Assembly: GCF_913058035.1 (NCBI RefSeq)
Contig: NZ_CAJXPA010000014.1
Location: 1-45,507 of the forward strand
From: an uncultured Paraglaciecola sp.
Lineage (GTDB): Bacteria; Pseudomonadota; Gammaproteobacteria; Enterobacterales; Alteromonadaceae
Reading direction: 5' to 3'
DNA length: 45,507 nt
The translations under genes and the position numbers were made by a program. Below, one piece after another: positions 10,772 through 34,603 of this stretch. The notes beneath the pieces are model-generated. The model ran no database searches. It saw nothing but the letters and a program-made list of their open reading frames with translations, and was not told where the DNA came from. Position 1 is the first letter of the stretch; each line of letters starts with the position of its first letter.

Positions 10772-10868
10772 ATTGAATTTTAGATCTTTAATTTCTAATT
10801 AAAGCGGTGTGGCGGTTATCGACTATTGCTTTGATATGGATTTGGTCATTTGCTGGAATGTAGAAACA

Positions 10869-12719
10869 ATGCTGCAAAATCAGGATATTTTTATTGATCA
10901 GGCCTCTGCGAAGTCAGTCGTTAAGGAAATTTATAATATTACAGCACCAAAAGGGGTCTTTGAGGTATTCAACAAGGAACGAAACGGTGTCACTTATCCC
11001 GCATTTTTAACATTACCCAATAATTTGGGAGACATGTTTAAAAAGGCTGCTGATGCACATGGGCAAGCGGATTTTTTGGTTTACCAAGATGAGCGTTATA
11101 GCTTTGAAACGTTATACCAACTAGCCCTATCTTTTCGTGAAGTGTTAAGAGTCCAATACAATATAAAAAGAGGCGATAAAGTGGTTATCGCTATGCGTAA
11201 TTATCCGGAATGGCTGGTTTCTTTCATGGGCATCACTATGCTTGGGGCTGTGGCTGTGCCTATTAATGCATGGTGGTCGCAACAAGAGTTGTTGCATGTT
11301 ATTCAGCATTCTCAGGCTTTTCTGGTGATAACAGACGATAAACGTTACAACATACTTCAAGCGTCACTTCAACAAATTAACCTGCCGTGTCTGATAGCTA
11401 GGCCCAATGAGCAACAAGGTAATGATCTGTGTTTGATGCGCAAAATCAAAAGTGTTACTGAGAAAAGTGTTACTGAGAAAAGTGTTACTGAGAAAAGTGT
11501 TGAAAAGAAAAGTGTTGAAAAGAAAAGTGTTGAAAAGAAAAGTGTTATCGCAAGTCACACCCAAAACAAAACCTGTACTAACTCCACTACAGCTAAAATT
11601 TCATCAGATGATGTTCTGCCTAACGATACTGCCAGTATATTTTATACCTCTGGTTCTACCGGTTTCCCCAAAGGTGCAGTTTCCACTCATGAAAGTATAT
11701 TAACCGCCTTAAATACCTGGCTTATGCTGGGGGCCGCCGCGGGTATAGCGAATGGTACTGCGAATGTTGAGCCTGCATATCCTCCAGCGGCATTGATGAC
11801 AGTGCCGCTATTCCATGTGACGGGTTGCCACACTTTGTTTTTGTTATCCATGTTGATTGGTCGTAAAACAATAATGATGCCTTATTGGGATGCTGAGCTG
11901 GCTTTAATACTTATCGAAAAAGAACGCGTGACATATTTTAATGGTGTGCCCACTATGTCTATGGAGTTGATGAATCATCCACAAAAACACCAATATGATT
12001 TAACGTCATTATTGGACATTTGTGCGGGTGGCGCGGCAAGAGCACCCGAACATGTTCGAAAAATATGTCAGTCGTTTGCCCAAGGTAACCCTAGCTGTGG
12101 ATATGGCCTAACTGAAACCAATGCATTGGGCGCAGTCAATGGTCCAGTTGAGTATTTAGCCAAACCAACAAGTGCGGGTTTACCTACGCCGCCTATTGTC
12201 GACGTGCAGATTTTTAACGATACTAATCAATCATTGCCTCAAGGCCAGATTGGTGAAATTGCGATAAAAAGTATTGCTAATATTAGTGGTTATTGGCGAG
12301 ATGATGCGGCGACAGACGCTGCTTTTTCAAATGGGTATTTTAAGACAGGTGATCTTGGGTTTTTAGATGAAGACGGATTTATTTATATTGTGGACAGGAT
12401 CAAGGATATTATTATTCGAGGTGGTGAAAACATATCTTGTTTAGAGGTTGAATCTGCACTGTATCAGCACCCTAAAATTATTGAAACCTCAGTGTTTGCT
12501 TTACCAGATGATCGTTTGGGAGAACAGCCTGGGGCAATTGTCTACGTTAAAAGTATGGCAGAAATTGACGAAGACAGTCTAAAGTTGTTTCTTATAGATT
12601 TGATTGCTCACTTTAAAGTGCCAAGTAAAATTTGGTTGGTGGAGCAAAAGTTACCCCGCCTAGGGTCGGGTAAAATCGACAAACGAGGGTTAAAAGCCCA
12701 TTATCAAAATTTGGTTTAA
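10869..12719 (+). CDS. Acyl-CoA synthetase (AMP-forming ligase) with an internal repeat tract
   Basis: An adenylate-forming ligase of 616 residues from ATG 10869; the frame opens at GTG 10809, but the extra 20 residues look atypical. It activates a carboxylic acid to acyl-AMP and then acyl-CoA. Motifs: P-loop IFYTSGSTGFPKGAVS, adenine motif GYGLTETNALG, YFKTGDLGFLDEDGFIYIVD, hinge region DRIKDIIIRGGENIS, and catalytic Lys in LPRLGSGKIDKRG. Between the N-terminal domain and the P-loop (residues about 194-225) is an inserted run of three SVTEK and three SVEKK units. The gene is divergent from the double TetR and is followed 35 bases later by a MaoC hydratase and then an SDR. The most likely role is CoA activation of an acid released in the island's pathway, feeding beta-oxidation. 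Confidence 0.92.
   Translation: MLQNQDIFIDQASAKSVVKEIYNITAPKGVFEVFNKERNGVTYPAFLTLPNNLGDMFKKAADAHGQADFLVYQDERYSFETLYQLALSFREVLRVQYNIKRGDKVVIAMRNYPEWLVSFMGITMLGAVAVPINAWWSQQELLHVIQHSQAFLVITDDKRYNILQASLQQINLPCLIARPNEQQGNDLCLMRKIKSVTEKSVTEKSVTEKSVEKKSVEKKSVEKKSVIASHTQNKTCTNSTTAKISSDDVLPNDTASIFYTSGSTGFPKGAVSTHESILTALNTWLMLGAAAGIANGTANVEPAYPPAALMTVPLFHVTGCHTLFLLSMLIGRKTIMMPYWDAELALILIEKERVTYFNGVPTMSMELMNHPQKHQYDLTSLLDICAGGAARAPEHVRKICQSFAQGNPSCGYGLTETNALGAVNGPVEYLAKPTSAGLPTPPIVDVQIFNDTNQSLPQGQIGEIAIKSIANISGYWRDDAATDAAFSNGYFKTGDLGFLDEDGFIYIVDRIKDIIIRGGENISCLEVESALYQHPKIIETSVFALPDDRLGEQPGAIVYVKSMAEIDEDSLKLFLIDLIAHFKVPSKIWLVEQKLPRLGSGKIDKRGLKAHYQNLV
11448..11546 (+). repeat. 15-bp tandem repeat inside the acyl-CoA ligase gene
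   Basis: Six 15-bp units run in frame: three of AAAAGTGTTACTGAG and three of AAAAGTGTTGAAAAG, then a partial unit. They encode SVTEK x3 and SVEKK x3. The unit is a multiple of three, so copy changes keep the frame. The tract falls in a surface region just before the P-loop domain. Confidence 0.9.
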
Positions 12720-15076: not shown

Positions 15077-16051
15077 TTAATTCCGCTTATTTGCTTTCAA
15101 CGTTCTGATGATCCCATCGTTGACCTTTTCCCAGAACTTATTTGAATCGGCATGTTGGTATTCAAAAAAACCTTTACCGGTTTTAACGCCCAGATCGCCT
15201 TGTTGGACTTTATCGCGGATGCGTTGGTGCGATCTATAATTTGGGTCATCAAACGCCTCAGCGAGATACTCCCCAACATTAGCGATTGAATCAAGCCCGA
15301 CCATGTCCATGAATTGAATGGGTCCTACGCTAGGCAGTCTCAGCCCAAAGCCGTTTTTGACGACATTATCGATCTCCTCGGCGGTGGCAATTTCCGCATC
15401 CATCAGGCCCATGGCTGCTCCGATCAGTGCCCCTTGGAGAATATTATGGATGAAACCGGGGGTGTCTTTGCAGATCACGGGGTGTTTTCCCATCTCCTGA
15501 AACAGCGTCATTGCTTTTTCTTCTGTCGCTTTGGCGGTCTGCACACCAGACACAAGCTCCACCAAAGGACTTAAATGACCAGGGATGGTCCAGTGCGCAG
15601 TGATTGCTCTTTGGGGATATTTCATCTGCTCGGCAATGCGAGTAATACTCATGGAAGAGGTATTAGAGGCGATGATCACCTCCGGGGCACAGAGCTTGTC
15701 GCAGCGGGTAAAAAGCGCTTTTTTTTGAGCCATATCCTCAGGAATGACCTCCATGATGAAGTCTGCCTTGGAAATGGCGGCATCCCAATCCATTGAGCGA
15801 TTGATACGCTGCAGCGCACTCTGAGCCTGCTCTTTATCGAGGAGACCGCCTGCGACCATCTGCATACAATTGGCTTCTGCTCTTTTTGCCGCCTTTACCA
15901 GTTGCGTCTCAAAAAGATCCACTGCCGTAACGTCATACCCTGCGATAGCAAACGTAAGGGCGATGTCGACTCCCATGACTCCCTGCCCCAAAATGGTCAC
16001 TTGCTGAATGTTTTTGTTTTTAATCGCAGCTTGGCTATCTTGTTGATTCAT
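15077..16051 (-). CDS. 3-hydroxyacyl-CoA dehydrogenase (copy 1)
   Basis: A 324-residue NAD-dependent 3-hydroxyacyl-CoA dehydrogenase. The N-terminal Rossmann motif is VTILGQGVMGVDIALTFAIA, with VDLFETQ after the second strand. SNTSSMSITRIAEQM and the His region TAHWTIPGHLSPLVELVSG mark the active site; the usual HFFNP reads AHWTIPG. The C-terminal domain has KDTPGFIHNILQGALIGAAM and ends with a GKGFFEY motif. It is 50 bases downstream of an acetoacetate-decarboxylase-like gene, a pairing repeated at 17052-19042. Sampled rows in this gene run at about 50-55% GC, against about 40-45% around it, which suggests separate acquisition. Confidence 0.9.
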   Translation of the reverse strand: MNQQDSQAAIKNKNIQQVTILGQGVMGVDIALTFAIAGYDVTAVDLFETQLVKAAKRAEANCMQMVAGGLLDKEQAQSALQRINRSMDWDAAISKADFIMEVIPEDMAQKKALFTRCDKLCAPEVIIASNTSSMSITRIAEQMKYPQRAITAHWTIPGHLSPLVELVSGVQTAKATEEKAMTLFQEMGKHPVICKDTPGFIHNILQGALIGAAMGLMDAEIATAEEIDNVVKNGFGLRLPSVGPIQFMDMVGLDSIANVGEYLAEAFDDPNYRSHQRIRDKVQQGDLGVKTGKGFFEYQHADSNKFWEKVNDGIIRTLKANKRN

Positions 16052-16101
16052 TTTTATTAATCTCTTTTTAGGGGTTGATGCTATCAGCCCTATAACAAAG
16101 G

Positions 16102-16905
16102 CTATTTTAACTCTCGAATGAGTTTTCCAGCTGGCTCCAGTTCTGTGGTGCCTTTGGTAACGGCCGTGTAAATAACCCCCAGATTTGGCAAATCCGCCAA
16201 AGCATTAATAATGTGAAATTGTGTTGGATTTTGCTCCCAGCTTAGGTGCTCCCAGTGAACCTCTCCCTGTCCAAGCCAAACCTCTGTGGCGATATTCTCA
16301 GATGGGAAAAGGGTGGGGTAACTCACTGCGGGGCCAACGCCATTTGGATTCGGGATGTATTTGTATCCCATCCAATTGTCTTTTCCCTGCATCGACTTTT
16401 TCGCTTCAGCAATATCTTTTTCACTCAGGGGGGTAAGATTATCGGCGCTTATTTTGAGAATTTGGTTGCCAAAATGGCTGGCATTGGCCCGCCACTGACC
16501 ATTGCTAATCTGGTGATCAGGTATATCCGCATAGATTTTGGGGATCCCCTTAATTTCACGACCGGTTAGGATAGGATCGGTAAGGTTTTCCCACATAGCC
16601 AGGGTTAAAGCCCCTTCCAATTGGTCCTCTTTGCCCTTGAACTTCACCGAAGCATTGACGCCGATCAGGTTATAAGACCGGCCGGCCAGCCATTCAACCC
16701 CTTTGTTGCAGGCATATGAAACAGTAATAATCGGCAATTCCCCCACCTCAAATGGCGCCGGAATATATTTAGCAAGCTGCTCGCGGTCGGTGAGATAAGA
16801 GACAATAATGCTGGTGACATCGTTATATTTTCTGCCTATCACCTTGCGAGGAATAGGGCCGAAAAAAACGGGCATGAGATATTCTTCATTTGGATCAAAA
16901 AACAT
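16102..16905 (-). CDS. Acetoacetate decarboxylase-like protein (copy 1)
   Basis: A 267-residue member of the acetoacetate decarboxylase superfamily. I chose ATG 16905 over GTG 16914 because it aligns with copy 2 (MFFDPNEEYLMPVFFG against MFTPSPNKLYTMPAHFG). The family core is clear: AKYIPAPFEVGELPIITVSY, VNASVKFKGK, WENLTDPILTGREIKGIPK. The Lys in GIPK matches the Schiff-base Lys of authentic Adc, but the next residue is Ile where Clostridium Adc has a second Lys (PKK). The beta-keto-acid decarboxylase reaction is therefore not assured; related superfamily members are aldolase-dehydratases or other imine enzymes. Probably co-transcribed with the dehydrogenase copy 1 just downstream. Confidence 0.85.
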   Translation of the reverse strand: MFFDPNEEYLMPVFFGPIPRKVIGRKYNDVTSIIVSYLTDREQLAKYIPAPFEVGELPIITVSYACNKGVEWLAGRSYNLIGVNASVKFKGKEDQLEGALTLAMWENLTDPILTGREIKGIPKIYADIPDHQISNGQWRANASHFGNQILKISADNLTPLSEKDIAEAKKSMQGKDNWMGYKYIPNPNGVGPAVSYPTLFPSENIATEVWLGQGEVHWEHLSWEQNPTQFHIINALADLPNLGVIYTAVTKGTTELEPAGKLIRELK

Positions 16906-17051
16906 GATAATCACCCATCATTTTATTGTGATAAATATTTTTAAGGAAAGCTTGCATTACAAGTATTCTCCTATGGCGCTAACGCCCTCAAAGTGCCATA
17001 GAAACTCCGAATCAAGATTAGGCACAATCATTAAAACTTATGCCCGCTTAG

Positions 17052-18224
17052 CTATGGCTGAGGGGCGATGTCGATAAATCCTTGAATGGCGTTCACTTGC
17101 TCTTCTGAACATAACGCAATGGCAGCCTGTGTTGTCTTTGATAATGCATCAAATTCTGTAACACCCCATTCGCTAAGCATGGTGAACGGTCCTTTTGCAA
17201 TTGAAACGCCGGTCACCCAAGTTTGATCAATCATCTCCCGATCGGCGACACCCGCGTCATATACCAAAATGGCCCGTTGTATGATGGCCGTGCTTAACGC
17301 CTTATAAAGTCGTTTAGGTATATCCTTGTTTTGCGTAAACTCAGGTGCCTGCCAACTGGCATGTGGGTAGCCATAAAAACCTTTTCCTGTTCTCATACCC
17401 AGATCACCTCGTTGCACAAAAGGTTTTAAATAGGCGCTGACTCGTTTAGAAATAACTTGCTCGTAGGCTTCTGTTTTTTCATCCGCCCAACTGTCATAGA
17501 TTACTTTTATACCGATATAATCCATTAAGCCAAAAGGCCCCATCGCACCATTACTATGAGCTAACCAAGCGCGATCAATTTCTTCAATAGTGCCCTCACC
17601 ATTAGCGACCAATAAAATTGCGCCGGTAAGAAAAGAGCCTAATAATGCATTGAGTAAATAGCCCGGATATTCTTTATTCAACAACAACGGCTGGCAATGT
17701 AGACTTTTCACATAGCGCACTAACGTCTGCAATGTTTTGGTCTCGCACCGTGGGCCACCCACAATATCCATTAATGGAATGCTAAGGTAAGAATGAAGCG
17801 CTGCGAATCGACCGCCATCCTCAAGTGCCGAATCCAGTTCAGAAACTAACAATGCTGACGTATTAGTGGTGATGATGCAGTGGGGTTGGCAATGATTCTC
17901 TATGACTTTAAGCACTTTGCGTTTTAAATCTCGCTGTTCAAACACCGATTCACTGACTAAATCTGCCGAGCCTAATGCCGTTGTCGCATCACCACTTAAG
18001 GTCACTCGTTGCATAGCCAGCGTAAAATCTTGCTGGCTTATCGTACCCGCCGCTAACATCGGTTCTGCAAGTTGTGTATATTTCGAATCAGTAGCCGCTA
18101 AATTTTGCGCTGACACATCGTACAAAATCACTTGATAACCTGCCAACGCAGCGATAAGTGAGTTGTAACACCCCATAGTGCCACTGCCGACAAAGCAAAC
18201 GGTTTTTATTTCAGGGAGAGTCAT
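17052..18224 (-). CDS. 3-hydroxyacyl-CoA dehydrogenase (copy 2)
   Basis: A 390-residue 3-hydroxyacyl-CoA dehydrogenase. The Rossmann motif is CFVGSGTMGCYNSLIAALAG, followed by LYDVSAQNL, TNTSALLVSEL, and a His region ALHSYLSIPLMDIVGGP. The GKGFYGYPHASW motif is followed by about 90 further residues that read as a second 3HCDH C-terminal repeat (RAILVYDAGVADREMIDQTW), absent from copy 1. Its start ATG overlaps the stop of the upstream decarboxylase-like gene by four bases (18221-18224), so the two are translationally coupled. The AHW/LHS active-site forms in both copies deviate from the usual HFFNP signature, hinting at an unusual substrate shared by both. Confidence 0.9.
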   Translation of the reverse strand: MTLPEIKTVCFVGSGTMGCYNSLIAALAGYQVILYDVSAQNLAATDSKYTQLAEPMLAAGTISQQDFTLAMQRVTLSGDATTALGSADLVSESVFEQRDLKRKVLKVIENHCQPHCIITTNTSALLVSELDSALEDGGRFAALHSYLSIPLMDIVGGPRCETKTLQTLVRYVKSLHCQPLLLNKEYPGYLLNALLGSFLTGAILLVANGEGTIEEIDRAWLAHSNGAMGPFGLMDYIGIKVIYDSWADEKTEAYEQVISKRVSAYLKPFVQRGDLGMRTGKGFYGYPHASWQAPEFTQNKDIPKRLYKALSTAIIQRAILVYDAGVADREMIDQTWVTGVSIAKGPFTMLSEWGVTEFDALSKTTQAAIALCSEEQVNAIQGFIDIAPQP

Positions 18225-19042
18225 ACATTAAGTACTCGCGTTGGGCGATCCGTTAAGGTTAAATTCACACTGCCTTTTGTCACCACAGAGGGTAAGTACG
18301 AAATAATTGGCAACGCAGCGATGGCATTAACAATCTGAAACTGAGTCGGGTTTTGCTGCCAAGTAAGACTGTGCCAATCCACCTCGCCTTCGCCCACAAA
18401 AACTTCACGATGAAAACTTTCACTTGGAAACGTAGTAACCTCGTTCAGTGCCGCCCCATCCACGCCAATATTTGGCAAGTATCGGCACGCCATTGGATGA
18501 TCTTTTCCGAGCTGGCTTTGTATCATTGCTGTCATTTCTTGAGCACTTAACGCGGTTAAGTTTTTAATAGAAAGATCAACAATCTTATGACCAAAATGGC
18601 TGGCGTTGGTGGCCAGTTTTCCTAATCGCTCTGAATGCTCTGGAATATCAGCAAACACTTTTGGTATCCCCTGCACCTCACGGCCGCGCAAAATGGGGTC
18701 GGTTAAATTTTCCCAAATGGCTAAACAATATGAGCCTTCTAGGGTTTCATTCTTGCCTTTAAAGATCACTGAAGCATTCACACCGATCATGTTATAACCA
18801 TGACCCGCAAGCCAATCGACTTGCTTATTACAACAGTAATAAACGGTGATCACCGGAACCGATGTGGGCTCAAATCCGGCTGGTAAATACCGCGCGATTG
18901 CTTCTCTGTCGGTAATATATGGCACCGCAATAACTGTGACATCGTGATACCACCCATTGGGGACGGTATCTTGCTGATTATGATCACTTTCACCAAAGTG
19001 TGCTGGCATGGTGTATAACTTATTAGGGCTTGGGGTAAACAT
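18221..19042 (-). CDS. Acetoacetate decarboxylase-like protein (copy 2)
   Basis: A 273-residue paralogue of the protein at 16102-16905, similar along its whole length: ARYLPAGFEPTSVPVITVYY, VNASVIFKGKNETLEG, WENLTDPILRGREVQGIPK. The candidate Schiff-base Lys is residue about 128, again followed by a non-Lys residue (Val) instead of the second Lys of classical Adc. The gene starts 29 bases after the aldehyde dehydrogenase stop and overlaps the dehydrogenase copy 2 by four bases, giving an operon of aldehyde dehydrogenase, this gene and dehydrogenase. A role in decarboxylating or otherwise processing a beta-keto intermediate is inferred. Confidence 0.85.
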   Translation of the reverse strand: MFTPSPNKLYTMPAHFGESDHNQQDTVPNGWYHDVTVIAVPYITDREAIARYLPAGFEPTSVPVITVYYCCNKQVDWLAGHGYNMIGVNASVIFKGKNETLEGSYCLAIWENLTDPILRGREVQGIPKVFADIPEHSERLGKLATNASHFGHKIVDLSIKNLTALSAQEMTAMIQSQLGKDHPMACRYLPNIGVDGAALNEVTTFPSESFHREVFVGEGEVDWHSLTWQQNPTQFQIVNAIAALPIISYLPSVVTKGSVNLTLTDRPTRVLNV

Positions 19043-19071: not shown

Positions 19072-20475
19072 TTATTTCGCGATATTAATGATTTTAGTTT
19101 GGGTAAATTCGGCCAACCCTGACTCACCTAATTCACTGCCAAAGCCCGATTGCTTGGCACCACCAAAGGGAATTGCTGGATCTAGCTCGCCATGTTTATT
19201 TATCCAAACAGTTCCTGCATCTATTTGATTGGCCAAGTGATAAACCGCTTTGCTATTCTCGCCCCATACCGAAGCACCCAAGCCAAAAATACTCGAGTTT
19301 ATACTGACCAATAGCGCCTCTTCATCGTGATAGCGAATAATGGGCAACACTGGGCCAAATTGCTCTTCGTCGACCAAGCGTGTCCCTTCGCTAATGTCTT
19401 TAAATAAAGTTGGGCGAATAAAATAACCTGTACCGGGCACTGTTTGTTTAGTCGTGATTTGAATGCCATGAGATTGGGATTCTGCAATCAGCGCTTTCAC
19501 CTTGTTATATTGCAACGCATTTTGTAACGGGCCCATGGTGGTAGTCTCTGCCATACCATTGCCTATCACAACGCCATCGGCCATGACTGCCAACCGATCA
19601 CAAACATCGTCGTAAATACTGTCGTGTACATACAGGCGTTTAACCGCGATACAAATTTGACCTGCGTTATGAAAGGCTGCTCCAAATATTTTGGGGAGCG
19701 CATCATCAAGTTTGGTATCCGCCATGATCACTGCCGCATCGTTACCACCGAGTTCTAGCGTAATGCGTTTAATCAAATCGGCGGCTCCCGCCATAACTTT
19801 TGAACCGGTCGCCGTAGAGCCAGTGAACGAAACTTTATTGACATCGGGATGGGCCGTCAGCGGTGCGCCCAGTTCGTTATTGTCGGTAATAATATTCAGG
19901 GTACCGGCGGGTAAAATATCTTTAATTAACTCACCGATACGCAAAGTACTTAACGGGGTGGTCGACGCGGGTTTCAACACCATGGTATTACCGGCTATCA
20001 AAGCGGGCGATAATTTAAAGGCCATTAATATCAATGGGAAATTCCAAGGCACCATGGCCGCAATCACACCTAATGGTTTTGCATGAACTTCTACGCGGCG
20101 CTGCGTACTGTCTTCTAATATTCTAACGGGTAACGTTAGCTCGCAAAAATATCGGCAAAAAGTCACAAAGCCATGCACTTCTATCACTGCATCAGCAATC
20201 GGCTTGCCCTGTTCTTGTACTAACAATTCGCCTAACTCTTGGGCATGGGCTTCTACCACCTCAGCAACCTTGGCAAGCAAGGCTTGCCGAGTGGCCATTG
20301 GTGTTGCACTCCAATCGGGAAATGCCGCCTTAGCCGCAGCGACAGCTTGATTTAATTGATTGAGAGAAGCGTGAGGGCTATTTGCCACCAGCGTTTCGTC
20401 GGCCGGATTCATTACCGCCATGGTATTATCACCAGCGATAAGTTCGCCGTTTATGAGTAACCGATAAACCGTCAT
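19072..20475 (-). CDS. NAD(P)-dependent aldehyde dehydrogenase
   Basis: An ALDH-superfamily enzyme of 467 residues from ATG 20475; the frame extends to TTG 20493, but MTVYRLLINGELIAGD is the natural N-terminus. Motifs: MVPWNFPLILMAFKLSPALI for cofactor binding, GSTATGSKVM, the general-base Glu in LELGGNDAAV, the catalytic Cys in FHNAGQICIAVKRLYV, and EEQFGPVLPII. It oxidises an aldehyde to the carboxylic acid in the cytoplasm. It heads the operon with decarboxylase-like copy 2 and dehydrogenase copy 2, and diverges from a TetR regulator across a spacer containing a 24-bp palindrome. It could serve the aldehyde made from the alcohol released by Baeyer-Villiger ester cleavage. Confidence 0.93.
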   Translation of the reverse strand: MTVYRLLINGELIAGDNTMAVMNPADETLVANSPHASLNQLNQAVAAAKAAFPDWSATPMATRQALLAKVAEVVEAHAQELGELLVQEQGKPIADAVIEVHGFVTFCRYFCELTLPVRILEDSTQRRVEVHAKPLGVIAAMVPWNFPLILMAFKLSPALIAGNTMVLKPASTTPLSTLRIGELIKDILPAGTLNIITDNNELGAPLTAHPDVNKVSFTGSTATGSKVMAGAADLIKRITLELGGNDAAVIMADTKLDDALPKIFGAAFHNAGQICIAVKRLYVHDSIYDDVCDRLAVMADGVVIGNGMAETTTMGPLQNALQYNKVKALIAESQSHGIQITTKQTVPGTGYFIRPTLFKDISEGTRLVDEEQFGPVLPIIRYHDEEALLVSINSSIFGLGASVWGENSKAVYHLANQIDAGTVWINKHGELDPAIPFGGAKQSGFGSELGESGLAEFTQTKIINIAK

Positions 20476-20538
20476 TTTATTTACCCGATTCAATTTATTG
20501 TTGTAGCAAACCTAAAGTAATTAAAAATCTATCAATAT

Positions 20539-20562: not shown

Positions 20563-20788
20563 ATCTAATAAAACATGCTCATGTTCGTGTATATGTGGGC
20601 TTAAGTTGATAACTTGATAATGTTTTTAAGTTAAAAATTGTATTTACTGCAGAATTAAGTTTATTAAAAATTTAATTGGAGAATATATTTTTAATAATGT
20701 CTGCATATAAACAAGTTTAGAGTTGAAAAGTGTTAACTCCTGCAGTATTTTCATTGCTAAAATAATCCTTGTTTTAAATAGGTGTCAT

Positions 20789-21439
20789 ATGACTAAAAAT
20801 ACAATTAAAAATGAAAGTGCAGCTCCTAAGCGCAGTCGTCGTATTCAGGAGCGAACAGAAACTGCGCGCACCGATTTAATGAACGCCGCAACGCCAATGT
20901 TCGCTGAGCAAGGATTTGACGCGATTTCGGCAAGAGATATTGAAACCGCAGCCAAAGTAAATCGTGGCATGTTGGCTTACCACTTTGGCGGCAAGGATGA
21001 ACTGTGGAAGGCGGTTGCGGACAATATATTTAAGGCATTAAATGTGGCACTGGAGCAACGCCTAGTGATTATCAAAGAGGTGTCTAAACGTGAAAGCGTT
21101 GCATTATTGATTCGTTTTCATGTACGTTATTACGCCGAACATCCTGAATTAAGTCGCCTAATGAGTCAGGAAGCGCGACAAGACAGTTGGCGAATTCACT
21201 ACCTTACCGACATACATGTACGTCCAAGCGTCACTAAAATCAAGAAATACATTGCCAAAGAACTCAAACTCACCGACCAGCAATTTGCCCACTGGTATTA
21301 CATTATGGTCAGTGCCAGTGCGACCATTTTTTCGTTTGAGTCGGAATGTAAAATGCTATTTGGATTTAACCCTATATCAGAGGAGTCGATAATACGACAC
21401 GCTGAAATGTTAGTGGGTATGCTGTTAAAAGAAGGTTAA
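20789..21439 (+). CDS. TetR-family transcriptional regulator
   Basis: A TetR-family regulator of 216 residues from ATG 20789; the frame opens at TTG 20723, but the ATG has a GGTG box and gives the expected N-terminus MTKNTIKNESAAPKRSRR. The DNA-binding domain contains AEQGFDAISARDIETAAKVN then RGMLAYHFGGKDELW. The C-terminal part (FHVRYYAEHPELSRLMSQEA and the following helices) looks like the CerR/YbiH-type ligand domain. It is divergent from the aldehyde dehydrogenase operon and probably represses it through the palindrome at 20539. The ligand is not predictable. Confidence 0.9.
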   Translation: MTKNTIKNESAAPKRSRRIQERTETARTDLMNAATPMFAEQGFDAISARDIETAAKVNRGMLAYHFGGKDELWKAVADNIFKALNVALEQRLVIIKEVSKRESVALLIRFHVRYYAEHPELSRLMSQEARQDSWRIHYLTDIHVRPSVTKIKKYIAKELKLTDQQFAHWYYIMVSASATIFSFESECKMLFGFNPISEESIIRHAEMLVGMLLKEG

Positions 21440-26989: not shown

Positions 26990-29563
26990 ATGGTCCTGAA
27001 TACTCATAAACACACTGCTTTTAATCGATTAGCTTTTAATCAAATAGCTTTTAAACTTACTCCTTTGGCCTTTGCATTGATTTGTATTAGTACAAGTTCA
27101 ACGGTCTTGGCCCAAGAAGCTGCCACAGCAAATGAATCATCAGGCATAGAAGTGATTCAAATTACCTCCACAAAACGTGTTACATCACTGATGGAAACAG
27201 GTCAAGCGGTCAGTGCATTTAGTGAAGAAAGCATGGCGCAGATGAATATTGATGGTAGCCAAGATTTGGTGCAATATTCTCCTTCATTAATTATTTCTTC
27301 TAGTAGAATATCCATACGAGGGGTGGGACGACCTAACACTGCACTAGGCTCTGACCCTGGTGTTGGCATATATACCGATGGTGTATACAACACCGAAAAT
27401 GGTATTTTTGATTATTGTAATTTTTGTGACATAGAGCGTATTGAAGTGCTGCGTGGACCTCAAGGTACGTTGTATGGCAGAAATGCTGTAGGCGGCGCAA
27501 TTAATGTCATCAGTAAAGAGCCCCAAAGAGAATTGGGTGGTTACGTTAACTTAGAAGCGGGCAATGACGGTTATTTAGTGACGCAAGGTCAAGTAACGGG
27601 GCCACTTGGTGAAACATTTTCAGCTATCGCTACGTTGTCTAAAATGGAGCGTGATGCACTACAAGAAAACTTAGCGGCTGATGTTGGCGACCTAGATAAT
27701 AGAGATCGAACTTATTATTCAGTTACCTTAAAAGCGGATTGGACTGAAAACTTTACCAGTACTTTGCGTTACATGAATTATGATCGCAGCGAAAATCCGT
27801 CACCTGGTTATTTAGGTGATGCTTACCCAACAGACTTTGTCAATCTTGGTGAGGGTCCTTTACCTGGGATTTTTACAGGTTCAAATGCGCTTAATCATGT
27901 GTCGGGATACACCATTGCCAATCCGGCAGTGAACGATATTAATCAAACCAATGTTGATTTTTTAGGTCAACAAGATGTGGAAACAAAACGCTTAACTTTC
28001 ATTAGCACATTGACATTAGATGAACTGGAATTTAAATACACCTATGGCGACAATGAGTTTACTTATGACTCTATTGCTGATGGTGATGTGTCAAATGCAG
28101 CCTTTGGAGGTATGAATTTTTCGGAAATGTTTAGACAAGTCACTACATTGGTTGGCATTCCAGGTGGGGTCTATTTACCCAATCCATTAACTGGCGCACC
28201 TATTACACTTGCCTCAGATATGACCGCTAGTGTGGTCCAATCAGGTGAGTTCACATCTCATGAATTACAGGTAGTATCCAACTACGATGGTGCCTTAAAT
28301 TTTATTGCTGGTGTGTACTATTTTAATAGTGAAGAGAGTCAATATAGCGACTTTGTTGAGCGTGGTTTTGGCTTAATGCAGGGCGATGCTATTGCTGCAA
28401 ATTATGGTGGTTTCCCCCCTGAGCTTGGTTTGCCTGCCGACAGTGGTACTTTCTTAGGTTTTCCAGGTTTTCAGCCAGGATTGTATCAGTTTTATTCTTC
28501 ACTCATTGGCGCGCCTTTCGAAGCGACGGCTAATGGTGATGGTGGCTTTTTGTATTATGGACAAAATGAGCTCGAAACGACTGCTACTGCTTTATATGGT
28601 CAACTAGAATACCAAGTCAATGATGCGCTCACTTTAACCGCAGGTCTGCGTTATTCAAACGATGAAAAAACGGGGTCAGATGATGTATTTGCTTACTTAT
28701 CCGTGCCTAAAAATCAGCATTTAGTTGATGACAGTTGGAACAAAGTCACTTGGCGTTTACAGGCTGATTGGAATGTTGACAAAGATACGTTTGTTTATGG
28801 CTACATATCTACCGGATATCGCTCTGGTGGTTTCAACCTGGGTGCAGCGACAGCAGCACCAGTAGACGTGGTTGATCCAGAAGAATTAACTGCATTTGAA
28901 GTCGGCTATAAAAAATCGTTATATGACAATAATGTTAACCTTTCTTTAGCGGCATATTATTACGATTATGCTGATCTGCAAGTGCTTTCGACAGTCACCG
29001 AAGGGGGAGTTACTACCGCCGCATTTGATAATGCAGCACAAGCTACAGTCATGGGGTTTGAGGCAGAATTACAGGCTTGGTTGACCCCAGATTTCCGTAT
29101 TATGACGACCTATTCTTATACCCATTCAGAATACGATAACTATACAGCGGTTGATTCCACCGCCTGCGCCATTTTAGGCGAATGTGATGTTCAGGATCTG
29201 TCAGGTAACCAATTGAATATGGCACCTGAAAACAAATTCTCAGTGTCTGCCACTCAATTTTTTGAGCTGAATGGCATGGGTAGAGTATTGTTAACGGCGG
29301 GCTATTCTTATGTGGGTGAACAATACTCTCGGTCTTTTAATCGCAGTGACTGGGATCAAGTCGATAGTTATGACCGTATCGATGCTCGCCTAAGCTGGAC
29401 ATCTGAAAGTGAAGCTTTTGAGGTAGCCGCCTTTGTGAGAAATGCCGCTGATGAACGCGATATTTTACGCTACACAACACCTTCTACAGTGACACGTTTG
29501 CAGAATGTCGAGCTGTCCGATCCCATCTCGTACGGTTTGCAAGTTCGTTATAGCTTTTATTAA
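26990..29563 (+). CDS. TonB-dependent outer-membrane receptor
   Basis: An 857-residue TonB-dependent receptor. The signal region ends near residue 42 (STVLAQ), followed by a TonB box (IEVIQITSTKR), plug sequence (DLVQYSPSLIISSSRISIRG) and the plug motif IERIEVLRGPQGTLYGRNAV. The beta-barrel ends in YGLQVRYSFY, with a terminal aromatic as required for assembly. A CNFCDIE segment in the plug suggests a disulfide loop. It is closest in style to the catabolic receptors of Alteromonadales and sphingomonads rather than to siderophore receptors. A GGGGAAA ribosome site precedes ATG 26990. It follows the symporter and is closed by a strong hairpin at 29577, making a symporter-receptor uptake unit. 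Confidence 0.93.
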   Translation: MVLNTHKHTAFNRLAFNQIAFKLTPLAFALICISTSSTVLAQEAATANESSGIEVIQITSTKRVTSLMETGQAVSAFSEESMAQMNIDGSQDLVQYSPSLIISSSRISIRGVGRPNTALGSDPGVGIYTDGVYNTENGIFDYCNFCDIERIEVLRGPQGTLYGRNAVGGAINVISKEPQRELGGYVNLEAGNDGYLVTQGQVTGPLGETFSAIATLSKMERDALQENLAADVGDLDNRDRTYYSVTLKADWTENFTSTLRYMNYDRSENPSPGYLGDAYPTDFVNLGEGPLPGIFTGSNALNHVSGYTIANPAVNDINQTNVDFLGQQDVETKRLTFISTLTLDELEFKYTYGDNEFTYDSIADGDVSNAAFGGMNFSEMFRQVTTLVGIPGGVYLPNPLTGAPITLASDMTASVVQSGEFTSHELQVVSNYDGALNFIAGVYYFNSEESQYSDFVERGFGLMQGDAIAANYGGFPPELGLPADSGTFLGFPGFQPGLYQFYSSLIGAPFEATANGDGGFLYYGQNELETTATALYGQLEYQVNDALTLTAGLRYSNDEKTGSDDVFAYLSVPKNQHLVDDSWNKVTWRLQADWNVDKDTFVYGYISTGYRSGGFNLGAATAAPVDVVDPEELTAFEVGYKKSLYDNNVNLSLAAYYYDYADLQVLSTVTEGGVTTAAFDNAAQATVMGFEAELQAWLTPDFRIMTTYSYTHSEYDNYTAVDSTACAILGECDVQDLSGNQLNMAPENKFSVSATQFFELNGMGRVLLTAGYSYVGEQYSRSFNRSDWDQVDSYDRIDARLSWTSESEAFEVAAFVRNAADERDILRYTTPSTVTRLQNVELSDPISYGLQVRYSFY

Positions 29564-29642: not shown

Positions 29643-30335
29643 ATGAATTTTGAAACTGTCATCAGGCGATGCCCTTGGTTTAATGGTGCACCTGAATCTG
29701 CCTTTGAGACATTAATCGAGGCGGCAAGATTAAAGCGTTTCGATCAAAAAAAGTATCTGTATCGATTGGGTGAAGAAGGAGAGTTTGTTTACGCTGTGGT
29801 ATCGGGGTTTGTTCGCATAAAAATTAGCAGTATTCACGGACAAGAGTTTGCGATCACCGAGTTTTCATGTAACGCCTGGCTAGGAGAATTTACCCTAACT
29901 AACCAACCAGCTAGGATGTTTGAAGCGCAAGTGCTGGATAACTCAAGCATTATTCAAATCCCCAAACGAGTCGTAAAAACACTCGCTGAAGAACACCCTG
30001 TTATTTATCAAAACTTGTTTTTGGCACAAGCCGAAAAAACTTTACAAATGTGTGAGCTATTGGGTGGCATGTTGTTCTATCCGCTTGCTGCTAGGTTAGC
30101 CGGAAGGTTGCAATGGTTTGCCCAACATTATGGGATACAAACTAATGAAGGTATTTTGATTGATAAAAAAATGACTCAACAAGAATTGGCTGAACTGGCT
30201 CGTGGTTCGCGACAAAGGGTGAACAAAATAGTGAAAGAGTTTGAAGATGAAGATATTTTGATTCTGACCGGACAGAAATACTTGATCAAAAATATGCGGG
30301 CATTAAAAGCTAAAACACAGTTCAAAAACGAATAA
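29643..30335 (+). CDS. Crp/Fnr-family transcriptional regulator
   Basis: A 230-residue regulator. The N-terminal cyclic-nucleotide-binding-type beta-roll runs from about 20 to 115 (YLYRLGEEGEFVYAVVSGFV, ITEFSCNAWLGEFTL), then a long dimer helix and a C-terminal winged helix (KKMTQQELAELARGSRQRVN, residues about 178-197). It lacks an N-terminal Cys cluster, so it is not an FNR-type oxygen sensor. The phosphate-binding region (GEFTLTNQPARMFEA) differs from the cAMP consensus, so its ligand is uncertain. It sits directly before the BVMO operon, which carries a CCTAGG-centred palindrome in its upstream region; a similar site precedes the thiolase. It is the best candidate regulator for both. Confidence 0.9.
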   Translation: MNFETVIRRCPWFNGAPESAFETLIEAARLKRFDQKKYLYRLGEEGEFVYAVVSGFVRIKISSIHGQEFAITEFSCNAWLGEFTLTNQPARMFEAQVLDNSSIIQIPKRVVKTLAEEHPVIYQNLFLAQAEKTLQMCELLGGMLFYPLAARLAGRLQWFAQHYGIQTNEGILIDKKMTQQELAELARGSRQRVNKIVKEFEDEDILILTGQKYLIKNMRALKAKTQFKNE

Positions 30336-30555: not shown

Positions 30556-32046
30556 ATGAATGCGGTTAACAACAATGTCAATAACGTCGAACATTTTGAT
30601 GTGCTGGTAGTCGGTGCAGGTTTATCAGGAATAGGCTCTGCTTACCATTTGAAAACACAACTACCAGACAAAAGTTTTTGTGTACTCGATGGCATGGAAA
30701 GTTTTGGCGGTACTTGGCTAACGCATAACTATCCTGGCGTTCGTTCGGACAGTGACTTATTCACTTTTGGCTATCGATTTAAACCTTGGACAGGTTCACC
30801 TATTGCTAATGGTGCTGAAATTTTGAAGTACATGGGCGAAGTTATCGCTGACAATCATATAGATCAGCATATTCGCTACAACCATCATGTACTTGGTGCA
30901 AGTTGGGACAGTGTGAGTCAACTTTGGACCATTACTGCATTTAAAAAAGACAGCAAAGAAACCGTCCTTATTACCGCTCACTTTTTATGGATGTGCCAAG
31001 GTTATTATAATCACGAAAAAGGTTATACCCCTGATTGGAATGGTAAAGATGATTACCAAGGCTTGCTCGTGCATCCACAGGATTGGCCAAAGGATTTACA
31101 TTATAAAGACAAAAAGGTCGTCATCATTGGTTCCGGTGCCACAGCTGCCACTTTAGCGCCTAACATAGCGGAAGATTGCGAACATGTGACATTGCTACAG
31201 CGCTCTCCGACCTATTTTATTCCAAGGCCAAATAACAACCCGTTAACGGATCAATTACGTGATATCGGGATTGACGATGCATGGATACACGAAATAACCC
31301 GAAAGCAGTTACTTCAAGAGCAGGCTGGCTTTATTCAACTGTCTACTCAATATCCAAATGAAGTCAAAAAAGGTTTGATTGATGGCGTAGCGGCGCTTTT
31401 GGACGATGATTTTGATGTGGAAAAACACTTTACCCCCAAGTATGCCCCTTGGAGACAACGTATCGCGGTTGTGCCTGAAGGCGATATCTTTGCAGGAATT
31501 CGCTCAGGTAAAGTGGACGTTAAAACAGACCAAATTGAGTGTTTTAACGAAACGGGGATCGCGCTGCAGTCGGGCGAACAACTTGACGCTGACATTATTA
31601 TTTCAGCCACAGGATTTAACCTGTCAGTCTTAGGTGGGATTGAGTTTTCTGTTGACGGCAAGATTGTCGACTTTTCTGAGAAAGTAGGCTATCGAGGCAT
31701 GATGTTTACCGATGTACCTAATATGGTGTGGGTAATGGGGTATTTTCGTGCTAGTTGGACCTTACGAGTTGATTTAATAGGCGACTTCATCTGCCGATTG
31801 TTAACACATATGGACCAAAAACAGGTTAAACAACTCACCATGACACTGCGAGATGAAGACGCTGATATGGAGTTGTTGCCTTGGATCGATACCGAAGAAT
31901 TTAACCCGGGTTATATGCTGCGGTCATTACATTTGATGCCGAAACGCGGCAACAAAGCGGATTGGCAACATACCCAAGATTATTGGGCAGAAAAAGACAC
32001 ACTACCTTCAGTCAATTTAGACGACAAACTGTTTGTGTATAAGTAG
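30556..32046 (+). CDS. Type I Baeyer-Villiger monooxygenase (flavin-dependent)
   Basis: A 496-residue FAD- and NADPH-dependent monooxygenase that inserts oxygen next to a ketone carbonyl to give an ester or lactone. The FAD-binding GAGLSG is at residues 20-25, GGTWLTHNYPGVRSD follows, and the second Rossmann motif GSGATA is at 192-197. The Baeyer-Villiger fingerprint FxGxxxHxxxWP is present at 167-178 as YQGLLVHPQDWP, with Tyr for Phe. IISATGFNL is the late ATG motif. Length and style are closest to EtaA-type enzymes. It is first in a tightly packed operon containing an alcohol dehydrogenase, a hydrolase and an acyl-CoA dehydrogenase, exactly the enzymes needed after ester formation. The ketone substrate is unknown. 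Confidence 0.93.
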   Translation: MNAVNNNVNNVEHFDVLVVGAGLSGIGSAYHLKTQLPDKSFCVLDGMESFGGTWLTHNYPGVRSDSDLFTFGYRFKPWTGSPIANGAEILKYMGEVIADNHIDQHIRYNHHVLGASWDSVSQLWTITAFKKDSKETVLITAHFLWMCQGYYNHEKGYTPDWNGKDDYQGLLVHPQDWPKDLHYKDKKVVIIGSGATAATLAPNIAEDCEHVTLLQRSPTYFIPRPNNNPLTDQLRDIGIDDAWIHEITRKQLLQEQAGFIQLSTQYPNEVKKGLIDGVAALLDDDFDVEKHFTPKYAPWRQRIAVVPEGDIFAGIRSGKVDVKTDQIECFNETGIALQSGEQLDADIIISATGFNLSVLGGIEFSVDGKIVDFSEKVGYRGMMFTDVPNMVWVMGYFRASWTLRVDLIGDFICRLLTHMDQKQVKQLTMTLRDEDADMELLPWIDTEEFNPGYMLRSLHLMPKRGNKADWQHTQDYWAEKDTLPSVNLDDKLFVYK

Positions 32047-33243: not shown

Positions 33244-33671
33244 GTACTGAGTCTAAAACCGATTTTCTTTTTTTCTTTCCGATCACGACCAGGTGGATGG
33301 ATAACGACATGTTCGGTCACGTGAATAACACCCATTATTACTCATATTTTGACACGGTTGTGAATCAGTTTTTAATCGAACAGGCGGGTTTCAACCCAAT
33401 GACGAGCGCCCAAATTGGTTTTATTGTGAAATCTAGTTGTCATTATATGAGTCCTGTCGCTTACCCTGAACAACTGATTGGCGCTTTCAGAGTTGATCGT
33501 CTTGGAAAAAGCTCCGTAAATTACTCAATAGGTATTTTTAAGCAAGACCAAGACACGGCTTCAGCAGTGGGTTGTTTGACCCACGTATTTGTTGATCGTG
33601 AGACACAAAAGCCAACGGCCATTCAAGGTAAAATGCGCGAAGCTATGGTATCAGCGATGGTAAAGGTATGA
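33240..33671 (+). CDS. Hotdog-fold acyl-CoA thioesterase (4HBT type)
   Basis: A 143-residue thioesterase. The 4-hydroxybenzoyl-CoA thioesterase motif is seen near the N-terminus: TTRWMDNDMFGHVNNTHYYS, with the catalytic acid in the WMDND segment and conserved GHVNN. Length is typical for FcbC/YbgC-like proteins. It overlaps the alcohol dehydrogenase by 4 bases upstream and the hydrolase by 4 downstream (ATGA junctions), so translation is coupled. A likely job is freeing CoA from a dead-end acyl-CoA formed by the pathway, or releasing a product acid. Confidence 0.9.
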   Translation: MSTESKTDFLFFFPITTRWMDNDMFGHVNNTHYYSYFDTVVNQFLIEQAGFNPMTSAQIGFIVKSSCHYMSPVAYPEQLIGAFRVDRLGKSSVNYSIGIFKQDQDTASAVGCLTHVFVDRETQKPTAIQGKMREAMVSAMVKV

Positions 33672-34603
33672 GCCAAGAAATAATGGATAACCATTTAATG
33701 TTTGAACATGTCATTAAAGTAAACAGTGTTGATATTGCGTATCAACTGCATGGCAATCCATCACACCCCACACTGTTGCTCATTCATGGATTAAGCACAC
33801 CATTAACTGGCTGGCCCAGTGAAATGGTTGATGAATTAGTGGCTGCTAACTTTCAAATTTTACTTGTAGATAATCGTGATGTGGGGCGCTCCCAGCAGCT
33901 TGACCATTTACCTATACCCAATATGGGCTGGGTCATAACGAAGTTAAAACTAGGACTCTCAATAAAAACGCCATATCAACTTGAAGATATGATGCGAGAT
34001 ATCATTGCATTATTGGATGCACTTAAATTATCTGAAGTCCATGTGGTGGGGGCGTCAATGGGCGGAATGATAGCGCAATTGATGGCAGTCCATTATCCAC
34101 AAAAGATAAAAACCTTAACTTCTATTATGTCTACAACCGGATATAAACAGCTGCCTGGGATAGACAAAAATATTCGCCAAACGCTGTTACAAAAACCGGC
34201 CTCCAAAGAGTATAAAGATCAGATACATTACCACATCAGAAAATGGCAAGTGATTGGCAGTCCAGATTACCCATCTTCCGAAACTGATTTGCGGCAATAC
34301 GTCGAAAGCATGTTGCAGCGAGGGATCACAACGAAAGGCACAATCCGGCAAATGCTGGCAATAATGGCCGCTGGTAATAGAGAAGGTGAATTATCTAAGC
34401 TAAATGTCCCAAGTTTAGTTATTCACGGTGACTGCGATGGACTAGTCAATGTAGCAGGTGGTAAAGCCACAGCAGATGCCATACCCAACGCAAAACTAAA
34501 AATTTACCCAGGAATGGGGCATGATTTTCCTGTTCAATTAATTCCCAACATAGTCGATGACATCGTGACCCATATAAATAAGAATAATGGTGAAAGAGCA
34601 TGA
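33668..34603 (+). CDS. Alpha/beta hydrolase (esterase/lactonase-like)
   Basis: A 311-residue alpha/beta hydrolase without signal peptide. LLIHGLSTPLTGWPSEM supplies the oxyanion loop, VHVVGASMGGMIAQLMAVHY the nucleophile elbow (GASMG), VPSLVIHGDCDGLVNV the acid strand and YPGMGHDFP the catalytic His. It is of the class that contains aclacinomycin-methylesterase-like and lactone or ester hydrolases. Coupled by 4-base overlaps to the thioesterase and SDR genes in the BVMO operon. It is the most likely enzyme for hydrolysing the ester or lactone that the BVMO makes; this is inferred from context. Confidence 0.9.
   Translation: MSQEIMDNHLMFEHVIKVNSVDIAYQLHGNPSHPTLLLIHGLSTPLTGWPSEMVDELVAANFQILLVDNRDVGRSQQLDHLPIPNMGWVITKLKLGLSIKTPYQLEDMMRDIIALLDALKLSEVHVVGASMGGMIAQLMAVHYPQKIKTLTSIMSTTGYKQLPGIDKNIRQTLLQKPASKEYKDQIHYHIRKWQVIGSPDYPSSETDLRQYVESMLQRGITTKGTIRQMLAIMAAGNREGELSKLNVPSLVIHGDCDGLVNVAGGKATADAIPNAKLKIYPGMGHDFPVQLIPNIVDDIVTHINKNNGERA

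What the first reader, a model, noticed from the sequence alone, without database searches (positions are those of the whole stretch)
15077..19042. Twin modules of acetoacetate-decarboxylase-like protein plus 3-hydroxyacyl-CoA dehydrogenase
The same two-gene order (decarboxylase-like, then dehydrogenase) occurs twice in tandem. Both decarboxylase-like proteins keep the Schiff-base Lys in GIPK but have Ile or Val where clostridial Adc has its second Lys. Both dehydrogenases have altered active-site surroundings (AHWTIPG, LHSYLSIP). Paired co-divergence suggests a coupled reaction on an unusual beta-hydroxy or beta-keto intermediate, possibly not simple acetoacetate decarboxylation.
Basis: partly seen in the sequence, partly recalled or inferred. 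Interest (0 to 1): 0.7.

Follow-up and report, generated by a model that had tools for sequence, protein, structure and literature searches.

The report
Paired hydroxy-acid dehydrogenase and decarboxylase-like genes
Two side-by-side gene pairs in a bacterium probably make enzymes that oxidise a hydroxy acid and then split the resulting keto acid, without the usual coenzyme A tag, as part of breaking down a still unknown compound.

Summary
In detail: on the minus strand, ALDH–ADC2–HAD2–ADC1–HAD1 form an operon-like array. "Twin modules" is only half right. The decarboxylase-like proteins are paralogues (50% identity), but the dehydrogenases (28%) lie in different lineages and were recruited separately; each pair also occurs without the other. 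In the ADC clade found here, 22 of 33 genes have a HAD gene directly downstream (21 of 22 in the Halieaceae/Alteromonadales-type set), against 1 of 75 other ADC-family places. ADC1 and ADC2 keep the Schiff-base lysine but lack the counterparts of four accessory residues of classical acetoacetate decarboxylase and share a clade-specific invariant glutamate. The dehydrogenases keep catalytic Ser/His/Asn but lack CoA-binding lysines; HAD1 groups with non-CoA relatives, HAD2 does not. Best reading (0.5): NAD-dependent oxidation of a free beta-hydroxy acid, then Schiff-base decarboxylation of the beta-keto acid, inside a catabolic island (TonB receptor, GPH symporter, BVMO, esterases, acyl-CoA enzymes). 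The substrate is unknown, and no activity was measured. By sequence it is neither ordinary acetoacetate decarboxylation nor ordinary 3-hydroxybutyryl-CoA chemistry. New variant of known kinds; moderate interest.

The parts
19072..20493 (-). aldehyde dehydrogenase, first gene of the operon-like array
   Evidence: Pfam PF00171 482.9 bits; orthologues at 92% (L006) and 89% (L007) in the same place
18221..19042 (-). ADC2, acetoacetate-decarboxylase-like, Schiff-base Lys128 followed by Val
   Evidence: PF06314 117.5 bits; closest PDB chain 3cmb E 2.7e-44; alignment A2
17052..18224 (-). HAD2, 3-hydroxyacyl-CoA-dehydrogenase-like with an extra C-terminal helical domain
   Evidence: PF02737+PF00725; model pLDDT 87.7, FadB-alpha-like and diketoreductase-like folds
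16102..16914 (-). ADC1, acetoacetate-decarboxylase-like, Schiff-base Lys126 followed by Ile
   Evidence: PF06314 117.5 bits; closest PDB chain 3cmb E 6e-44; 50% identical to ADC2
15077..16051 (-). HAD1, dehydrogenase that groups with non-CoA members of the HAD family
   Evidence: PF02737+PF00725; groups with CRYL1, FHMPC dehydrogenase and a carnitine-dehydrogenase-like protein, 99/98
20723..21439 (+). TetR-family regulator, divergent from the array
   Evidence: PF00440; 47-62% identical TetR in 9 of 17 related loci
10809..12719 (+). acyl-CoA synthetase, linked by shared neighbourhood
   Evidence: PF00501; 43-44% homologues beside ADC2-HAD2 in L119, L120, L121, 26% in L006 and L125
12754..13218 (+). 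MaoC-type enoyl-CoA hydratase
   Evidence: PF01575; 46-55% in L120, L126, L128
13309..14229 (+). SDR1, short-chain dehydrogenase
   Evidence: PF00106; 64-66% in L119, L120, L126, L128
25373..26794 (+). GPH-type (MFS_2) cation symporter
   Evidence: PF13347; TIGR00792 184 bits, below its cut-off; homologue at 32-42% in 14 of 17 related loci
26990..29563 (+). TonB-dependent receptor
   Evidence: PF00593 and PF07715; homologue at 28-41% in 12 of 17 related loci
29643..30335 (+). Crp/Fnr-type regulator
   Evidence: PF00027, PF13545; homologue at 35-43% in 7 of 17 related loci
30556..32046 (+). Baeyer-Villiger-type flavin monooxygenase (YxGxxxHxxxWP)
   Evidence: Pfam FMO-like; motif
33668..34603 (+). 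alpha/beta hydrolase (macrolide-esterase-like)
   Evidence: PF00561, NF052610 150.8 bits, below its cut-off; 61-62% homologue beside an FMO and ADC1-HAD1 in L007 and L008
35550..37355 (+). acyl-CoA dehydrogenase
   Evidence: PF12806 and others; homologue at 63% in L120, 38% in L125, 24% in L009

Best explanation
Each ADC-HAD pair is a two-step, probably CoA-independent unit of a catabolic pathway. The HAD enzyme oxidises a free beta-hydroxy acid (or a closely similar beta-hydroxy carboxyl compound) with NAD+ to the beta-keto acid. The ADC-like enzyme then forms a Schiff base on the keto group through Lys126 (ADC1) or Lys128 (ADC2), and the bond to the carboxylate breaks, most likely giving CO2 and a ketone. 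The ketone can be oxidised by the Baeyer-Villiger-type monooxygenase to an ester, cut by the alpha/beta hydrolase, and the fragments go through the alcohol and aldehyde dehydrogenases and the acyl-CoA synthetase into beta-oxidation (ACAD, MaoC, SDR1, thiolase). Two pairs with different HADs would handle two different intermediates or stereoisomers of one larger compound imported by the TonB receptor and GPH symporter. Shown: gene order, conservation, residue losses, HAD lineages. Inferred: substrate class, direction, decarboxylation, and every step after it.
For: Conserved adjacency: 22 of 33 clade ADC genes have a HAD gene directly downstream on the same strand. Partners change while 'a dehydrogenase next to ADC' stays. 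Free-acid signs: at the CaHBD K50/K54/K56 columns the HAD1 rows (3 of 4 aligned) have no Lys and the HAD2 rows (7 of 17 aligned) have one, at column 56 in L125, while Ser/His/Asn are kept; in the four CoA-type references only column 54 is Lys in all. CoA contacts of Lys54, Lys56 and Arg143 come from passages of PMC11476959. HAD1 groups with CRYL1, FHMPC-DH and a CDH-like protein at 99/98 and shares PxHLxPLVE and GLR....GP with the L068 HAD. Schiff-base Lys invariant in 16 of 16 clade rows. BVMO plus esterase is an established ketone route for acetone in Gordonia (one passage of PMC6215540), and an FMO plus a 61-62% identical hydrolase sit beside ADC1-HAD1 in L007 and L008.
Against: No substrate or activity was measured. 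ADC1 and ADC2 lack the classical accessory residues, so decarboxylation itself is not shown; relatives of this fold are aldolase-dehydratases (PDB titles). By NCBIfam score HAD1 and HAD2 are nearest to CoA-type models, though below the cut-offs. HAD2 does not group with the free-acid HADs, and its best folds by E-value are FadB-type beta-oxidation subunits. The CoA-lysine columns are not invariant in CoA-type references either: 4j0e has His at column 50, pig HAD Phe at column 56. Ten of the 11 clade members outside the Halieaceae/Alteromonadales-type set have no HAD neighbour. No match to the window BVMO at E 1e-10 was seen in the fetched flanks of 16 of 17 related loci.
Confidence: 0.5

Rival explanations
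1. The HAD makes a beta-keto (or keto) acid, but the ADC-like enzyme is not a decarboxylase: it does Schiff-base aldolase, retro-aldol, dehydratase or C-C cleavage chemistry, as MppR and Sbi00515 do on the same fold.
For: The Arg29, Glu61, Glu76 and Lys116 counterparts are absent in ADC1/ADC2, and Glu109 is a clade-specific invariant acid. The fold search returns MppR, Sbi00515 and Swit_4259 as well as ADCs, though from a weak model (pLDDT 63.4). Clade members also sit in aromatic ring-cleavage-type clusters without a HAD (L017, L018). Two ADC-related genes of S. solfataricus were suggested to act as aldolases (passages of PMC7820114).
Against: The closest solved chain is 3cmb at 35% identity, far ahead of MppR; the Glu109 column is Val in MppR (alignment); pairing with a hydroxy-acid-type dehydrogenase is what a beta-keto-acid decarboxylase would need.
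Confidence: 0.27
2. The HADs are CoA-thioester dehydrogenases of beta-oxidation and the ADC-like proteins work on a separate step; they are neighbours only because they belong to one catabolic operon.
For: NCBIfam scores are nearest to 3-hydroxyacyl-CoA models; HAD2 resembles FadB-alpha by fold; acyl-CoA enzymes stand nearby.
Against: Direct ADC-HAD adjacency in 21 of 22 members of the Halieaceae/Alteromonadales-type set; loss of CoA lysines in both HADs; HAD1 groups with non-CoA HADs.
Confidence: 0.15
3. Ordinary ketone-body enzymes: acetoacetate decarboxylase plus 3-hydroxybutyryl-CoA dehydrogenase.
For: Pfam and NCBIfam family names.
Against: The second Lys and the Glu61/Glu76/Arg29 columns all differ; CoA lysines lost; NCBIfam ADC model at 38 and 24 bits against a cut-off of 150.
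Confidence: 0.05

Closest known systems
3cmb, 'acetoacetate decarboxylase' of Methanoculleus marisnigri (structural genomics)
   Same: Closest solved chain for both ADCs; keeps WEN...GREQTGIPKIYADI, so the same Glu and the same Lys-Ile pair
   Different: No function is known to me for it; its gene neighbourhood was not examined
Classical acetoacetate decarboxylase (PF06314, GFPKK)
   Same: Fold and Schiff-base Lys; often beside a dehydrogenase too: an SDR within 500 bp in 29 of 75 non-clade places
   Different: ADC1/ADC2 lack the Arg29, Glu61, Glu76 and Lys116 counterparts and have Glu109 / Glu111
MppR / Sbi00515 / Swit_4259 of the ADC superfamily
   Same: Same fold; Schiff-base Lys and no second Lys in the MppR stretch shown
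   Different: 11-16% identity in the fold search; MppR has Val at the WEN glutamate
Lambda-crystallin (CRYL1; L-gulonate dehydrogenase by recall), L-carnitine dehydrogenase-like proteins and FHMPC dehydrogenase
   Same: HAD1 groups with them. PxHLxPL[VI]E is shared by HAD1, L068 and L014; CRYL1 has PPYYIPLVE and FHMPC-DH PPHIIPMIE. A basic residue ahead of the GP of the C-domain is common to them (GLRLPSVGP in HAD1, GMRYAFIGP in CRYL1, GFRWAIYGP in L014, GYKIAVIGP in FHMPC-DH)
   Different: HAD1 is on its own branch (1.47 changes per column) and its substrate is unknown
Diketoreductase (4dyd) and FadB alpha
   Same: HAD2 fold: TM-score 0.91 on 4dyd by target length, E 7.5e-23 to a FadB-type chain
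   Different: HAD2 lacks about 3 residues after the catalytic His, has Asp for Glu, and lacks the CoA lysines
AcmA-AcmB (acetone monooxygenase and esterase) of Gordonia
   Same: BVMO plus hydrolase to open a ketone (PMC6215540, one passage)
   Different: In the window the two genes are separated by the FeADH and 4HBT genes, and the ketone is unknown

Membership tests
Classical acetoacetate decarboxylase | Schiff-base lysine (Lys115) | tested here: met
   K126 of ADC1 / K128 of ADC2; 16 of 16 clade rows, 29 of 30 classical rows
Classical acetoacetate decarboxylase | second lysine (Lys116) | tested here: not met
   Ile or Val in ADC1/ADC2; Lys in 30 of 30 classical rows, the loci L024-L053
Classical acetoacetate decarboxylase | Glu61 and Glu76 (numbers recalled; spacing to Lys115 checked) | tested here: not met
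   E at -54 and at -39 in 28 of 29 classical rows each; Ser/Tyr and Leu/Met in ADC1/ADC2
Classical acetoacetate decarboxylase | Arg29 (number recalled; spacing checked) | tested here: not met
   R at -86 in 23 of 29 classical rows; Val in ADC1/ADC2. The N-terminal alignment is gappy, so this row is the weakest
Classical acetoacetate decarboxylase | decarboxylates acetoacetate | not testable with these tools
   needs an enzyme assay
3-hydroxyacyl-CoA dehydrogenase (CoA type) | catalytic Ser, His and Asn | tested here: met
   in all 15 aligned rows
3-hydroxyacyl-CoA dehydrogenase (CoA type) | catalytic Glu | tested here: inconclusive
   Glu in the HAD1 rows, Asp in the 7 HAD2 rows
3-hydroxyacyl-CoA dehydrogenase (CoA type) | motif HXFXPXXXMXLXE | tested here: not met
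   HAD1 has HWTIPGHLSPLVE (Thr for Phe, Ser for Met); HAD2 is shortened (motif from PMC11476959 passages)
3-hydroxyacyl-CoA dehydrogenase (CoA type) | clamp-roof lysines that bind CoA | tested here: not met
   CaHBD 50/54/56 columns are Q/G/L in HAD1 and P/A/T in HAD2
Non-CoA HADs (CRYL1 / carnitine DH / FHMPC DH) | phylogenetic grouping of HAD1 | tested here: met
   99/98, 7 rows; long branches present, small reference set
Non-CoA HADs (CRYL1 / carnitine DH / FHMPC DH) | phylogenetic grouping of HAD2 | tested here: not met
   HAD2 rows form their own clade, on the side of pig and C. elegans HAD (93/94)
MppR-like aldolase-dehydratase | MppR active-site pattern | tested here: inconclusive
   MppR stretch has WVD and MPKQ where the clade has WEN and IPK[IV]; other MppR residues not compared
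Type I Baeyer-Villiger monooxygenase | FxGxxxHxxxW[PD] fingerprint (recalled) | tested here: inconclusive
   window gene has Tyr for Phe, rest intact (YQGLLVHPQDWP); L007 and L008 genes have the FMO form

The most novel reading that the evidence does not exclude
An uncharacterised branch of the acetoacetate-decarboxylase superfamily, with a new catalytic glutamate in place of the classical Arg/Glu/Glu/Lys set, works in fixed partnership with independently recruited CoA-free hydroxy-acid dehydrogenases. Together they form a swappable 'oxidise, then cleave' module that Halieaceae and Alteromonadales-type bacteria use to strip carboxyl carbon from a beta-hydroxy-acid natural product whose ordinary beta-oxidation is blocked.
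Probability: 0.35. Interest if true: 0.62.

Novelty: new variant of a known kind. Interest (0 to 1): 0.45.

Why it matters
ADC-superfamily proteins tend to be named acetoacetate decarboxylase (as in 3cmb and the plasmid records) and HAD proteins 3-hydroxyacyl-CoA dehydrogenase. Here both names are probably wrong in a conserved gene pair, and the pairing itself points to a defined, testable two-step reaction. If right, it gives a functional handle on an orphan ADC branch (structure 3cmb) and marks a catabolic island for an as yet unidentified compound.

Tried and rejected
Simple tandem duplication of one two-gene module: rejected, because the HADs are 28% identical and lie in different lineages. 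Plain acetoacetate/3-hydroxybutyryl-CoA chemistry: rejected on residues. Naming the substrate: I considered carnitine, hexuronates, steroids and macrolactones from neighbours; none rests on more than weak hints, so none is claimed. Active-site modelling of ADC1: the model was weak (pLDDT 63.4, residues 111-133 under 50), so only the fold was used. Promoters and terminators: 15 and 6 found against 14.6 and 6.2 in shuffles, not used. Mirror-tree correlation of ADC and HAD2 (r 0.86, 17 pairs) is not used as evidence, since shared descent of the hosts gives the same. Whether the contig belongs to the genome: not settled; the assembly has 5.48% contamination, and 1 of 22 genus genomes (the own one) has the clade ADC. 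Papers: ten searches. Of those that asked about the pairing or its contexts, 16, 39, 40 and 53 returned no paper and 79 returned one Legionella regulation paper (passages), not about such a pair. Only this open-licence library was searched.
Full report
What is there. The minus strand of the window carries ALDH (19072-20493), ADC2 (18221-19042), HAD2 (17052-18224), ADC1 (16102-16914) and HAD1 (15077-16051), in that transcriptional order, with a gap of 29 bp, a 4-bp overlap, and gaps of 137 and 50 bp. A TetR-family gene is divergent at 20723-21439. Pfam confirms PF06314 in both ADCs and both HAD domains in both dehydrogenases.

Is it a duplicated module? ADC1 and ADC2 are 50% identical over 266 columns. 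HAD1 and HAD2 are 28% identical, have different best NCBIfam models, all below cut-off, and separate in a tree of 18 rows: HAD1 falls with CRYL1, FHMPC dehydrogenase and a carnitine-dehydrogenase-like Agrobacterium protein (99/98), HAD2 forms its own clade (100/100) on the other side (the tool warns that two long branches meet in this tree, and the reference set is small). So the two pairs did not arise by copying one ADC-HAD unit; the partners differ.

Where else. One scan of genome contigs with the two ADCs gave 8 loci. Colwellia sp. 12G3 (L006) has the whole array ALDH-ADC2-HAD2-ADC1-HAD1 at 85-94% identity, behind an MFS_2 symporter, a Crp-type regulator and an acyl-CoA synthetase. A Glaciecola MAG (L007) has only ADC1-HAD1, and its genome has one ADC-family match; L008, an 8.7-kb contig, shows the same pair. 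A Halieaceae MAG (L009) and a Luminiphilus MAG (L011) have ADC2-HAD2, with one further, non-clade ADC-family match in each genome; two more Luminiphilus contigs and a short contig binned as Flavobacteriaceae show ADC2-HAD2 as far as they reach. A search of 341 genomes of the order of the Halieaceae MAG, at E 1e-20, found 12 places in 11 genomes; 11 of these 12 have HAD2 directly downstream and one (L129) has not. In 385 genomes of the class of G483, 5 have a clade member, none with a HAD neighbour. In 369 genomes drawn from the window's class, ADC2 found the own genome and two weak matches at 28% identity. In the window's genus 1 of 22 genomes, the own one, has it.

Neighbourhood count. Taking every ADC that scores over 200 bits against my clade model, 33 genes: 22 have a HAD gene directly downstream on the same strand. 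In the Halieaceae/Alteromonadales-type set it is 21 of 22. Outside the clade, 398 genomes of the phylum were searched with PF06314. With two further places in L009's and L011's genomes, one in the own genome and the two weak ones, 75 distinct non-clade places were checked; 1 has a HAD within 500 bp (L068), which is also the only HAD gene found in the 606 kb examined, while 29 have an SDR. For the 29 of these places held only as L024-L053, and for four others, 1.5 kb or less on each side was held, enough for the next gene only. In L068 the HAD is carnitine-dehydrogenase-like and is followed by an SDR that is 47% identical to the window gene at 2730-3527. The Agrobacterium plasmid locus has ABC transporter genes, ALDH, ADC and a carnitine-dehydrogenase-like HAD. 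So an ADC beside a dehydrogenase has been assembled several times with different dehydrogenases; this is the main argument for a coupled reaction.

Active sites. In the 30 classical ADCs (loci L024-L053) the residue after the Schiff-base Lys column is Lys in 30; in ADC1/ADC2 it is Ile/Val. Non-clade ADCs further from the classical ones vary too: L068 has AYPKR. Using recalled numbers of the clostridial enzyme, the spacing to Lys115 predicts Glu76 at -39, Glu61 at -54 and Arg29 at -86; classical rows with the motif have E, E and R there in 28, 28 and 23 of 29, while ADC1/ADC2 have Leu/Met, Ser/Tyr and Val/Val. Of 16 clade rows 2 keep a Glu at the -54 column and 2 an Arg at the -86 column; none has Glu at -39. 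The N-terminal part of this alignment is gappy, so the Arg29 column is the least sure. A glutamate at ADC1 position 109 (WEN) is invariant in 16 of 16 clade rows and Leu or Val in 30 classical ones; the archaeal 3cmb chain has it too. I infer that this Glu takes over acid-base work. For the HADs (3 of 4 HAD1 and 7 of 17 HAD2 rows aligned), Ser, His and Asn are kept in all rows, Glu is kept in HAD1 and is Asp in HAD2; the columns of CaHBD K50, K54 and K56 hold no Lys but for one at column 56 in the HAD2 of L125. Of these columns only 54 is Lys in all four CoA-type references. That Lys54, Lys56 and Arg143 contact CoA, and Ser117/His136/Glu148/Asn186 line the catalytic site, I read in passages of PMC11476959 for another bacterial HBD; the number match between the two enzymes is mine.

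Folds. The HAD2 model is good (pLDDT 87.7): Rossmann domain, HAD C-domain and a second helical C-domain; best by E-value are FadB-type alpha chains, and diketoreductase 4dyd has TM 0.91 by target length. The ADC1 model is weak but its fold search gives 3cmb first, then classical ADCs, Swit_4259, Sbi00515 and MppR.

Surroundings. In 17 related loci, homologues of window genes appear as follows: MFS_2 symporter 14, TonB receptor 12, TetR (47-62%) 9, Crp 7, ACS 5 (43-44% in 3, 26% in 2), SDR1 (64-66%) 4, MaoC 3, ACAD 3 (63% in one) (flanks differ in length, several loci are cut, and the receptor and symporter matches at 28-42% are family-level). The alpha/beta hydrolase at 33668-34603 has 61-62% relatives beside an FMO-type monooxygenase and ADC1-HAD1 in L007 and L008. 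The window's own monooxygenase has a near-complete BVMO fingerprint. Thus the window from about 10.8 to 40 kb reads as one catabolic island; that it is one regulatory unit is inference.

Mechanism. Shown: order, conservation, residue changes, lineages. Inferred: NAD-dependent oxidation of a free beta-hydroxy acid by HAD, Schiff-base cleavage of the beta-keto acid by ADC, and use of the ketone by BVMO and hydrolase, in the manner of acetone monooxygenase and its esterase (PMC6215540, one passage). I put this at 0.5; the main doubt is whether ADC1/ADC2 decarboxylate at all, given the lost accessory residues and the aldolase-type members of the superfamily. In S. solfataricus two ADC-related genes are induced on phenol and a role as aldolases was suggested (PMC7820114, passages), which shows that such names are unsafe.

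Verdict. Observation confirmed; interpretation partly supported; the twin-duplication element corrected; not ordinary by sequence, but made of known folds and unproven in function.

Noticed in passing
window 9274-10545 (-): A 423-aa ORF with two separate TetR_N matches, that is, an apparent double TetR regulator.
   Followed up: no
L011 7356-11006 and 11003-14308; L013 5752-9402: Beside the Luminiphilus ADC2-HAD2 pair, on the other strand, lie a 1216-aa protein with two SDR domains and, by eye, an acyl-CoA-synthetase-like protein; from recall these look like malonyl-CoA reductase and propionyl-CoA synthase of a partial 3-hydroxypropionate cycle.
   Followed up: no
   Followed up: partly
L007 8152-8427: Where Colwellia L006 has a full acyl-CoA synthetase, the Glaciecola MAG shows only a 91-aa open frame, so the ligase seems lost or cut short there.
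   Followed up: no
L010 1069-3137: A Halieaceae-type ADC2-HAD2 pair on a 4.1-kb contig binned as Flavobacteriaceae; it is sister to a gene of G1060, so a binning error is likelier than transfer.
   Followed up: partly
window 33668-34603 and 22050-23030: Hydrolases whose best NCBIfam hits are macrolide esterases (150.8 bits, cut-off 420) and a UilS-type AHL lactonase (87 bits, cut-off 400): a weak hint at a lactone substrate.
   Followed up: no
L016 (Croceicoccus marinus plasmid) 9977-10774: A clade ADC without HAD sits after TRAP transporter genes in a pectin/hexuronate-type cluster.
   Followed up: no
L017 and L018 (Rhizobium, Agrobacterium vitis plasmids): Clade ADCs without HAD sit beside a fumarylacetoacetate-hydrolase-family gene and aromatic ring-cleavage-type genes.
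   Followed up: no
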